In this document: positions 43,588 to 46,345 of the stretch, in pieces
Layout: every line of letters begins with the position of its first letter
Numbering within the stretch: position 1 is the stretch's first letter
Assembly: GCA_024693545.1 (NCBI GenBank)
Contig: JAILKT010000030.1
Coordinates: 1 to 52,345 of the forward strand
DNA length: 52,345 nt
From: Lachnospiraceae bacterium
GTDB taxonomy: Bacteria > Bacillota > Clostridia > Lachnospirales > Lachnospiraceae
Reading direction: 5' to 3'
The notes under the pieces: generated by a model
Databases searched by the model: none
What the model was told of the DNA's origin: nothing
Seen by the model: the letters and a program-made list of their open reading frames with translations, nothing else
Made by a program: the position numbers and the translations under genes

Positions 43588-44346
43588 TTATATCAGATTA
43601 CTGACAAAAGAAAGCCTGTGAATCGGGGTAAGTCCCATCTTTTTTATGGCATCGATATGTTGCTTTGTTCCGTAGCCTTTGTTTTGAGCAAAGCCATATT
43701 CCGGATACTGTTTATCATATTCGTCCATCAGTCTGTCTCTTGTTACCTTGGCCATAATACTTGCTGCCGCAATCGAAACACTTTGAGCATCTCCGTGCGT
43801 TATGGAGATCTGTCTTATGTCTGTATCGGGTATCCTAACGTAATCGTTAAGTAATATATCAGGTTTTTTACCCAGTCCTTCAATTGCTTTTTTCATTGCT
43901 TCGTAAGTAGCGTTGAGTATGTTTATCTCGTCGATCCTTTTATTATCCGAAAATCCAACACTTGAAGCAATTGACAATTCTTTTATTTTATAATAAAGTT
44001 CTTCTCTTCTTTTGGCGGAAAGCTTTTTTGAATCATTTAAATATAATATTTCAACATCTTTTCGAAGTATAACGGCTCCTGCACAAACAGGACCTGCGAG
44101 GGGTCCTCGCCCTGCTTCGTCAATTCCGCATATCAACTCACATTCTCCGTATTTTTTTTCGAAGAATTTCATTGTTTCGAGTCTTGCCCGTTCTTTTTTT
44201 AGCTTTTCGATCCTTGTAACAGCGGATGCTATGATCTTTTTTACCGAATCCCTGTTGTCTTCGGAATATTCTTTTATCAATGCATCAAGTTCGTTTTCTT
44301 CGCAGTTTGTAAAAATCTCTTTAATATATGATATCTTCTTTTCCAA
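43588..44346 (-). CDS. rnhB: Ribonuclease HII
   Basis: CGIDEAGRGPLAGPVCAGAVIL; SIAAASIMAKVTRDRLM. Confidence 0.97.
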   Translation of the reverse strand: MEKKISYIKEIFTNCEENELDALIKEYSEDNRDSVKKIIASAVTRIEKLKKERARLETMKFFEKKYGECELICGIDEAGRGPLAGPVCAGAVILRKDVEILYLNDSKKLSAKRREELYYKIKELSIASSVGFSDNKRIDEINILNATYEAMKKAIEGLGKKPDILLNDYVRIPDTDIRQISITHGDAQSVSIAAASIMAKVTRDRLMDEYDKQYPEYGFAQNKGYGTKQHIDAIKKMGLTPIHRLSFVSNLI

Positions 44347-44364: not shown

Positions 44365-45207
44365 TCATTCAAGTGTAATTTTTCCGAGACGTGAAGCTCT
44401 GAAATCATCAATTATAAGCTTGGATGCCTTTATAATATCCGGCTCTCCGCCTGCCATAAGAGCACCTCTGGCTATCGCGATCGATTTGATGATCTCGTTT
44501 ATATCTTCGGGAACAGGTAAGTCATCTTTAAAATATCTGTTTTTTATCGCACCCGGATATCTCTCTTTCAAGATACCGAGAAGATAATAGCAAAGCTCTT
44601 CGGGATAAAGTATATCATCATTTATAGAGCCTATAAAGGCAATGTTCATCCCAATTTTTTGATCTTCAAACTTCGGCCATAAGATTCCGGGGGTATCCAG
44701 AAGTTCAACCTGTCTGTTTAGCCTTATCCACTGTCTTCCTTTGGTAACACCGGGCTTGTTTCCTGTTTTGGCACATGCTTTACCCGCTATTGAATTAATA
44801 AAGGTCGATTTGCCGCTGTTGGGAATTCCGGCAACCATAGCTCTTATAGGGCGACCTATGATCCCTCGCGATCTGTCACGTTTTATCTTTTCCTCGCAAG
44901 CCTTTGTTATAATATCAAGGCTGCCTTTTATGCCTGCAGCGGTTCTGGAATCACAGGTATTGACAAAAAAGCCTTTTTCTTCGTAATACTTCTTGAAATA
45001 AGATGTTCTTACGGGATCTGCCAGATCGCATTTATTAAGGATCAAAACTCTGTATTTATTTTTTCCCAGAACATCAATATCCGGATTTTTGCTTGAAAGA
45101 GGTATCCTTGCATCGAGGATCTCAACTATAGCATCGATCACTTTGAGATCTTCTTCCATCTGCCTTTTGGCTTTACTCATATGTCCGGGGTACCATTGAT
45201 AAACCAT
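44365..45207 (-). CDS. rbgA: Ribosome biogenesis GTPase RbgA (YlqF)
   Basis: Circularly permuted GTPase: WYPGHMSKAKRQMEEDL, LNKCDLAD, GIPNSGKSTFIN, LLDTPGILWP. Confidence 0.96.
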   Translation of the reverse strand: MVYQWYPGHMSKAKRQMEEDLKVIDAIVEILDARIPLSSKNPDIDVLGKNKYRVLILNKCDLADPVRTSYFKKYYEEKGFFVNTCDSRTAAGIKGSLDIITKACEEKIKRDRSRGIIGRPIRAMVAGIPNSGKSTFINSIAGKACAKTGNKPGVTKGRQWIRLNRQVELLDTPGILWPKFEDQKIGMNIAFIGSINDDILYPEELCYYLLGILKERYPGAIKNRYFKDDLPVPEDINEIIKSIAIARGALMAGGEPDIIKASKLIIDDFRASRLGKITLE

Positions 45208-45216
45208 TATGTTCTC

Positions 45217-45828
45217 CTATTCTTCATCGTTTTCATTTGTCTTCAGATTAAGCTTACTGATAATAGAGAATGGCGAAATACTGATGAATGCTTCGCCTAT
45301 GATCTCATCCTTCGTAACATTGCCAAAATTAAAATATCTGCTGTCTTCACAATCGTTTCTGTTATCTCCGAGTACAAAATATTCATCCTCATCAAGCAAA
45401 ACATCTTCTTCAAACAGACCCGCAGTTATCATAGGTTCAACATTTATAGGTTCATCGATCATAATTCCGTTAACATAGAGATTTCCGTCGGTCACCCGGA
45501 TCTTTTCACCCGGAAGTCCGTAAACACGCCTGCAAGCGTAATAACTGTGCTCTTTTCCCGACTTATTAAATACTATAACATCAAATCTTTCGGGTTCCGA
45601 TAAAAGATATGCCATTCTGTTAACAATGATTATATCATCATCTGAAAGTGTCGGTTCCATCCCGCTTCCGACCATATTTGTTTTTTCGAGTGCCACAACC
45701 GTAAAAAGCCATCCTAAAAATATGGCTATAGAAGACGCAACGATCCATAGAATGATCCTTACGATAAGCTTATTTCGTTTGCTTTTCTTTTCCTGCCGGT
45801 CAAAATCAAATTCAAATTCGGTATCCAT
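45217..45828 (-). CDS. Signal peptidase I-like protein lacking canonical catalytic Ser/Lys
   Basis: SPase I fold boxes: NMVGSGMEPTL, RFDVIVF, ACRRVYGLPGEKI, YFVLGDNRNDCEDSR; canonical rplS-lepB-rbgA position. Confidence 0.85.
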   Translation of the reverse strand: MDTEFEFDFDRQEKKSKRNKLIVRIILWIVASSIAIFLGWLFTVVALEKTNMVGSGMEPTLSDDDIIIVNRMAYLLSEPERFDVIVFNKSGKEHSYYACRRVYGLPGEKIRVTDGNLYVNGIMIDEPINVEPMITAGLFEEDVLLDEDEYFVLGDNRNDCEDSRYFNFGNVTKDEIIGEAFISISPFSIISKLNLKTNENDEE

Positions 45829-45913: not shown

Positions 45914-45951
45914 CAAGTCTCGCCCGCCGGGAAAAACTGAGACATAAAACA

Positions 45952-45980
45952 AAAAGGAACGGCATAAAGCCGTCCCTTTT
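45952..45980 (-). terminator. Terminator of rplS
   Basis: On - strand AAAAGGGACGGC-TTTAT-GCCGTTCCTTTTTGTTTT. Confidence 0.85.
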
Positions 45981-45997
45981 CAAAACCGCTCATTTGA

Positions 45998-46345
45998 TCA
46001 GCGAATAACTTCCTTAACCTTAGCAGCCTTACCTGTTCTCTGACGAAGGTAGAATAACTTGGCACGTCTAACCTTACCGAGTCTGACAACTTCAATCTTT
46101 GCAACAATGGGTGAATGAAGAGGCCATGTCTTCTCAACGCCAACGCCGTTTGAAATTTTTCTGACTGTGAAAGTTTCTCTTGCTCCACCGTTCTGTCTCT
46201 TGGTAACAACGCCTTCGAAAACCTGCTGTCTCTCACGGTTACCTTCTTTAACAAGTGAAGAAACCCTAACAGTATCACCAACATTAAATTCGGTGATGTC
46301 GCTCTTTAACTGAGCTGCTTCAATGTTTTTGATAATATCGTTCAT
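45998..46345 (-). CDS. rplS: 50S ribosomal protein L19
   Basis: [60 protein letters not shown]. Confidence 0.98.

What the first reader, a model, noticed from the sequence alone, without database searches (positions are those of the whole stretch)
45217..45828. lepB at the canonical locus appears to encode a signal peptidase pseudo-enzyme
Seen: the protein keeps the SPase I layout (N-terminal TM, xGMEPT, PERFDVIVF, RVYGLPGE, GDNR..DSR). The residue expected to be the nucleophilic Ser (SMxPT) is Gly56 (VGSGMEPT; codon 45661-45663). The expected general-base Lys (KRVxGLPGD) is Arg100 (ACRRVYGLPGE; codon 45529-45531). The box E Ser is also Cys (GDNRNDCEDSR). Established: type I signal peptidases use a Ser/Lys dyad, and S. 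aureus SpsA is a precedent for an inactive paralog. Inference: this is either a repurposed pseudo-enzyme (chaperone, or regulator of an active paralog) or an unusual variant using the shifted Ser55. The ORF is intact, so it does not look like simple decay.
Basis: partly seen in the sequence, partly recalled or inferred. Interest (0 to 1): 0.72.

Follow-up and report, generated by a model that had tools for sequence, protein, structure and literature searches.

The report
Signal peptidase lacking its catalytic residues
In a large family of gut bacteria (Lachnospiraceae), one of two copies of the enzyme that trims export signals off proteins has repeatedly lost the two residues it needs to cut, yet stays under strong selection, so it probably does a different, non-cutting job; the protein in this window is one of these.

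Summary
Confirmed and extended. Window ORF 45217-45828 (-) is a full-length type I signal peptidase (SPase I) homologue between rplS and ylqF, with Gly56 for the catalytic Ser, Arg100 for the general-base Lys and Cys160 for the box E Ser. It is not an error: sister species share it with different synonymous codons, and dN/dS between two of them is 0.066. The genome has a second SPase with an intact dyad. Across Lachnospiraceae the operon is typically rplS-SPase(A)-ylqF-SPase(B)-rnhB. A and B are separate clades that arose by duplication within the family. The dyad is lost in 39 of 174 slot-A genes, 0 of 131 slot-B genes, and 0 of 53 SPases beside ylqF in other families of the class; on the tree this needs about 15 changes (at least 6 forced by well-supported branches). 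Arg100 is conserved, but Ser is lost in 22 of 47 Lys-lost proteins against 2 of 81 Lys-kept ones, so Ser/Arg is not a working dyad. The fold and peptide-cleft residues are kept. Best reading: a recurrent non-catalytic SPase, probably a binder or chaperone of signal peptides or exported precursors, like SipA of S. pyogenes and SpsA of S. aureus, but in a housekeeping operon. The function is inferred, not shown.

The parts
45217..45828 (-). SPase I homologue, 'slot A' lepB, dyad lost (G56/R100/C160), 203 aa
45661..45663 (-). codon of Gly56 (position of the catalytic Ser)
45529..45531 (-). codon of Arg100 (position of the general-base Lys)
45349..45351 (-). codon of Cys160 (position of box E Ser, E. 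coli Ser278)
45337..45369 (-). box E GDNRNDCEDSR, residues 154-164, otherwise conserved
45691..45804 (-). N-terminal helix incl. single transmembrane segment (residues 9-46 in the AF2 model)
45950..45982 (-). terminator-like hairpin between rplS and the SPase gene
   Evidence: one found, 0.9 expected in shuffles, so weak
45998..46345 (-). rplS (ribosomal protein L19), upstream neighbour
44365..45207 (-). ylqF/rbgA GTPase, downstream neighbour; its start lies 9 bases after the SPase stop
43588..44346 (-). rnhB; in most of the family a second, intact SPase (slot B) lies between ylqF and rnhB, absent here

Best explanation
The gene encodes a membrane-anchored, catalytically dead type I signal peptidase (S26 non-peptidase homologue). 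It belongs to a Lachnospiraceae-specific paralog ('slot A', between rplS and ylqF) that arose by duplication, and in which the Ser/Lys dyad was lost many times while another SPase (slot B, or in this genus a copy near ftsH) does the cutting. Shown by computation: dyad loss, recurrence, slot specificity, purifying selection, kept fold and cleft, active paralog present. Inferred: it has no peptidase activity, and it acts by binding signal peptides or N-terminal membrane segments of exported precursors without cleaving them (chaperone or substrate-holding role), a role that slot A had before it lost catalysis.
For: Residues. Intact paralog in own genome; in all six subclade genomes and nearly all dyad-lost genomes checked. 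Slot A 39/174 lost, slot B 0/131, other families 0/53. A and B are separate clades, duplicated inside the family. About 15 dyad changes on the tree, at least 6 forced; Ser 13 changes (at least 8 forced), Lys 14 (at least 6 forced); Ser lost in 22/47 Lys-lost rows versus 2/81 Lys-kept. dN/dS 0.066 for a pair with G56/R100/C160 at unsaturated dS 0.65. S56 became an average-rate site after K->R while M57, L61, R101, G154, S163 stay invariant. AF2 pLDDT 90.9. Fold matches SpsB and SipA. Codons differ synonymously between species.
Against: No activity or binding data. Many slot-A members keep Ser with Arg, so weak or pH-shifted activity cannot be excluded for those. Arg100 is itself conserved (1 change over tree length 5.4), which pure loss of catalysis does not predict. 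Two incomplete MAGs (G015 66%, G020 71% complete) showed no second SPase. No neighbour or co-occurring gene points to a specific client.
Confidence: 0.6

Rival explanations
1. Dead SPase that acts on the active SPase (hetero-oligomer partner, regulator or scaffold) rather than on substrates.
For: An active paralog is present in nearly every genome examined; tandem A/B arrangement in 115 loci.
Against: In the window genus slot B is absent from the locus and the active copy is of a distant clade elsewhere, so a specific A-B partnership is not conserved. No interface tested.
Confidence: 0.2
2. Still a protease with an unusual mechanism: Ser/Arg dyad in orthologs, shifted Ser55 or Cys in the window protein.
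For: Arg100 is conserved in 19 of the 20 orthologs of its lineage and Ser is kept in 15 of 20; Ser55 is present in the four G56 genus members.
Against: Ser is lost preferentially where Lys is lost (22/47 vs 2/81), and Arg persists where Ser is Ala/Gly/Val. Site 55 is among the fastest sites. Cys160 is at the Ser278 position, not the nucleophile's. Arg has too high a pKa for a general base (general knowledge).
Confidence: 0.1
3. Decaying or neutral relic kept open by its place in an essential operon and by translational coupling to ylqF.
For: The ylqF start is 9 bases downstream; slot A evolves faster than B (mean pairwise identity 0.41 vs 0.52).
Against: dN/dS 0.03-0.11, 0.066 in the unsaturated pair; cleft and box E residues invariant over tree length 5.4; ortholog found in all 24 genus genomes.
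Confidence: 0.05
4. Sequencing, assembly or contamination artefact of one MAG.
For: MAG is 84% complete with 4.65% contamination.
Against: Same substitutions with different codons in independent MAGs of several species (L033, L035, G003, G008, G019); synteny kept.
Confidence: 0.01

Closest known systems
S. aureus SpsA (inactive SPase I paralog beside the essential SpsB)
   Same: SPase I homologue lacking the catalytic residues in a genome with an active SPase; dispensable (PMC12445088). Tandem placement with an active copy, as in most Lachnospiraceae loci (SpsA/SpsB adjacency from memory).
   Different: SpsA is one lineage with no known role. Here the loss recurs in many lineages of one paralog within a bacterial family, with Arg the commonest replacement for Lys and locus rplS-ylqF.
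S. pyogenes SipA (Asp48/Gly85; PDB 4n31)
   Same: SPase I fold, dyad replaced, peptide-binding cleft kept (PMC4049620); fold match TMt 0.79.
   Different: SipA sits in a pilus cluster and is needed for pilus polymerisation with a class B sortase. The Lachnospiraceae gene sits in a ribosomal/housekeeping operon with no pilus genes beside it.
Canonical type I signal peptidases (E. coli LepB, S. aureus SpsB, B. subtilis SipS)
   Same: Membrane anchor, boxes A-E layout, GLPGE, GDNR..DSR, fold.
   Different: Catalytic Ser, general-base Lys and box E Ser all replaced.
Lachnospiraceae slot-B lepB
   Same: Same operon, same family, sister paralog.
   Different: 0 of 131 lost the dyad; slower evolving.

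Membership tests
type I signal peptidase (S26A), active enzyme | S26 fold and sequence homology | tested here: met
   PF10502 117.5 bits, TIGR02227 119.5 bits, fold match to SpsB
type I signal peptidase (S26A), active enzyme | N-terminal membrane anchor | tested here: met
   helix 9-46 in the model; hydrophobic stretch in sequence
type I signal peptidase (S26A), active enzyme | box B nucleophilic Ser | tested here: not met
   Gly56
type I signal peptidase (S26A), active enzyme | box D general-base Lys | tested here: not met
   Arg100
type I signal peptidase (S26A), active enzyme | box E Ser (E. coli Ser278) orienting the Lys | tested here: not met
   Cys160
type I signal peptidase (S26A), active enzyme | peptidase activity on signal peptides | not testable with these tools
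   needs assay or complementation
pseudo-SPase (SpsA/SipA-like, S26 non-peptidase homologue) | SPase fold without the Ser/Lys dyad | tested here: met
pseudo-SPase (SpsA/SipA-like, S26 non-peptidase homologue) | active SPase elsewhere in the genome | tested here: met
   C116 copy SSSM..KRVIGLPGE..GDNRNFSKDSR
pseudo-SPase (SpsA/SipA-like, S26 non-peptidase homologue) | peptide-binding cleft residues conserved | tested here: met
   M52, M57, L61, V86, L153 invariant in 23 genus orthologs; cleft mapping from E. coli SPase by memory
SipA (pilus-assembly pseudo-SPase) | encoded in a pilus cluster with class B sortase | tested here: not met
   rplS-ylqF-rnhB operon; two sortase matches lie on other contigs

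The most novel reading that the evidence does not exclude
Lachnospiraceae carry a second, membrane-bound SPase paralog whose essential role is not cutting; catalysis is dispensable there and has been discarded more than ten times, leaving a family-wide class of signal-peptide-binding pseudo-proteases in a ribosomal operon, with convergent Lys->Arg as a retained charge that serves the non-catalytic role.
Probability: 0.4. Interest if true: 0.75.

Novelty: new variant of a known kind. Interest (0 to 1): 0.6.

Why it matters
SPase I is treated as an essential drug target and lepB annotation is taken as evidence of secretion competence. Here automated models (TIGR02227, an 'equivalog') call a protein without either catalytic residue 'signal peptidase I', well above cut-off. 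Recurrent loss in one of two paralogs, with an intact internal control (slot B) in the same operon, is a natural experiment for what an SPase does besides cutting. That question is also open for SpsA and only partly answered for SipA. Both dyad-intact and dyad-lost species can be compared within one family of common gut bacteria.

Tried and rejected
Shifted Ser55 nucleophile (site not conserved). Cys160 or Cys99 as nucleophile (Cys99 absent in G003/G008; Cys160 at the wrong position). Ser/Arg working dyad as the general explanation. Artefact or private mutation. Relic kept for operon reasons. Sister N-terminal motif 'DYDFDR.E' as a mark of dyad loss: it does not track loss in the wider family. 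Pilus/sortase link: sortases exist in the genome but not beside the gene. Literature searches for Lachnospiraceae pseudo-SPase, SPase pseudoenzyme and Lys->Arg variants found nothing relevant in the held library; most subscription papers are not held, so absence is weak evidence.

Full report
Observation. The ORF at 45217-45828 (-) encodes a 203-aa protein with all the architectural marks of a type I signal peptidase. Alignment to solved SPases places Gly56 at the nucleophile and Arg100 at the general base; Cys160 replaces the box E Ser.

Active copy in the same genome. G000 is an incomplete MAG (84.3% complete, 4.65% contamination). It holds one other SPase I, on contig C116, with SSSM...KRVIGLPGE...GDNRNFSKDSR, i.e. 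an intact dyad. The same copy is found in the same-genus genomes G003, G008, G019 and G022; G001 also has an intact second SPase.

The genus. All 24 genomes of the genus searched have one ortholog, at 48-78% identity to the window protein. Residues at positions 56/100: S+K in four genomes, S+R in fourteen (two of them in the window's subclade), A+R in one, S+Q in one, and G+R in four including the window's. Codons for Gly56 (GGG/GGT) and Arg100 (AGG/AGA/CGT) differ between species, so the residues have been held through synonymous change. The unsaturated pair G003-G008, both G56/R100/C160, has dN/dS 0.066 (dN 0.043, dS 0.65); other pairs are near saturation and only indicative.

The family. 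A scan of named genomes and a sample of 299 family genomes plus fetched loci gave 328 distinct SPases. The usual Lachnospiraceae operon is rplS - SPase A - ylqF - SPase B - rnhB. A and B fall into separate clades (one change of slot on the tree). With SPases from other families of the class as outgroup, A+B form one group with support 100 and A with support 98, so the duplication lies inside the family. The dyad is lost in 39 of 174 slot-A proteins and in 0 of 131 slot-B proteins (Fisher 4.6e-11, not corrected for relatedness), and ten further orthologs of the genus with loss sit where ylqF is not adjacent. In 83 ylqF loci from other families, 53 SPases were found, all S+K, and no second slot. 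Sampling of the family was ranked by similarity to the window's lineage, so the 39/174 fraction is not an unbiased frequency.

Recurrence. On a 133-row IQ-TREE with the three trait columns removed, intact/lost needs 15 changes, at least 6 forced by starred branches. Ser loss needs 13 (at least 8 forced), Lys loss 14 (at least 6 forced) and Arg 13. Ser is lost in 22 of 47 proteins without Lys, and in 2 of 81 slot-A proteins with it. Examples besides the window: A+R in L063/L087, A+R in L094/L099/L108, V+R in L064, and a clade with Tyr/Asn/Asp + Glu/Ala/Asp/Gly in which even the invariant Gly of GDN is mostly Cys. In SipA the same Gly is replaced after Lys loss (PMC4049620).

Constraint. In the Lys-lost lineage of the window's genus (20 proteins, tree length 5.4) site 56 changed 3 times (an average site), site 100 once, while M57, L61, R101, G154 and S163 did not change. 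In the Tyr/Glu clade sites 56 and 100 are among the faster sites (84th percentile), with M57, L61, R101 and S163 invariant. The zero changes of S56 and K100 in 'intact' slot A are by definition and are not evidence.

Structure. The AF2 model (98-row alignment of window and locus proteins) has mean pLDDT 90.9 and pTM 0.81. Best PDB matches are S. aureus SpsB (E 7e-9) and S. pyogenes SipA (TMt 0.79), then E. coli SPase. No coordinates were available, so a relocated base was judged from sequence alone.

Mechanism. Shown: a full-length SPase fold with cleft residues kept, no dyad, strong purifying selection, and an active-looking SPase elsewhere in the genome. Inferred: no cleavage; binding of signal peptides or N-terminal membrane segments without cutting. 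SipA shows that this arrangement (dyad changed, cleft conserved, assembly function) exists (PMC4049620). The conserved Arg100 suggests the positive charge matters to that role or to folding next to box E; this is unexplained. Rivals and their probabilities are listed separately.

Novelty. Dead SPases are known (SpsA, SipA). A paralog lineage in which the dyad is lost again and again, with an intact sister gene in the same operon, was not found in the held literature; the library is partial. I file it as a new variant of a known kind.

Noticed in passing
L240:1428-2969, L241:4350-5891, L242:4874-6454: In sister lineages of the genus an exonuclease VII large subunit (xseA) fused to an N-terminal DUF5710 domain sits between the S+R SPase and ylqF (domains from Pfam for L240 and L241; L242 judged by its similar start), and rplS is no longer next door.
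   Followed up: partly
L043, L044, L045, L046, L049, L060, L139: In one dyad-lost clade the invariant Gly of the GDN motif (E. coli Gly272) is Cys ('VLCDNRNECEDSR').
   Followed up: partly
L041, L071 (two copies between ylqF and rnhB); L124 (copy upstream of rplS): Extra SPase copies around the same operon, up to three in one locus.
   Followed up: no
L116, L125: Two slot-A proteins lost Ser (to Ala) but keep Lys, the reverse order of the common path.
   Followed up: no
window 45950-45982 (-): Terminator-like hairpin between rplS and the SPase gene, which may uncouple the SPase-ylqF part from rplS.
   Followed up: no
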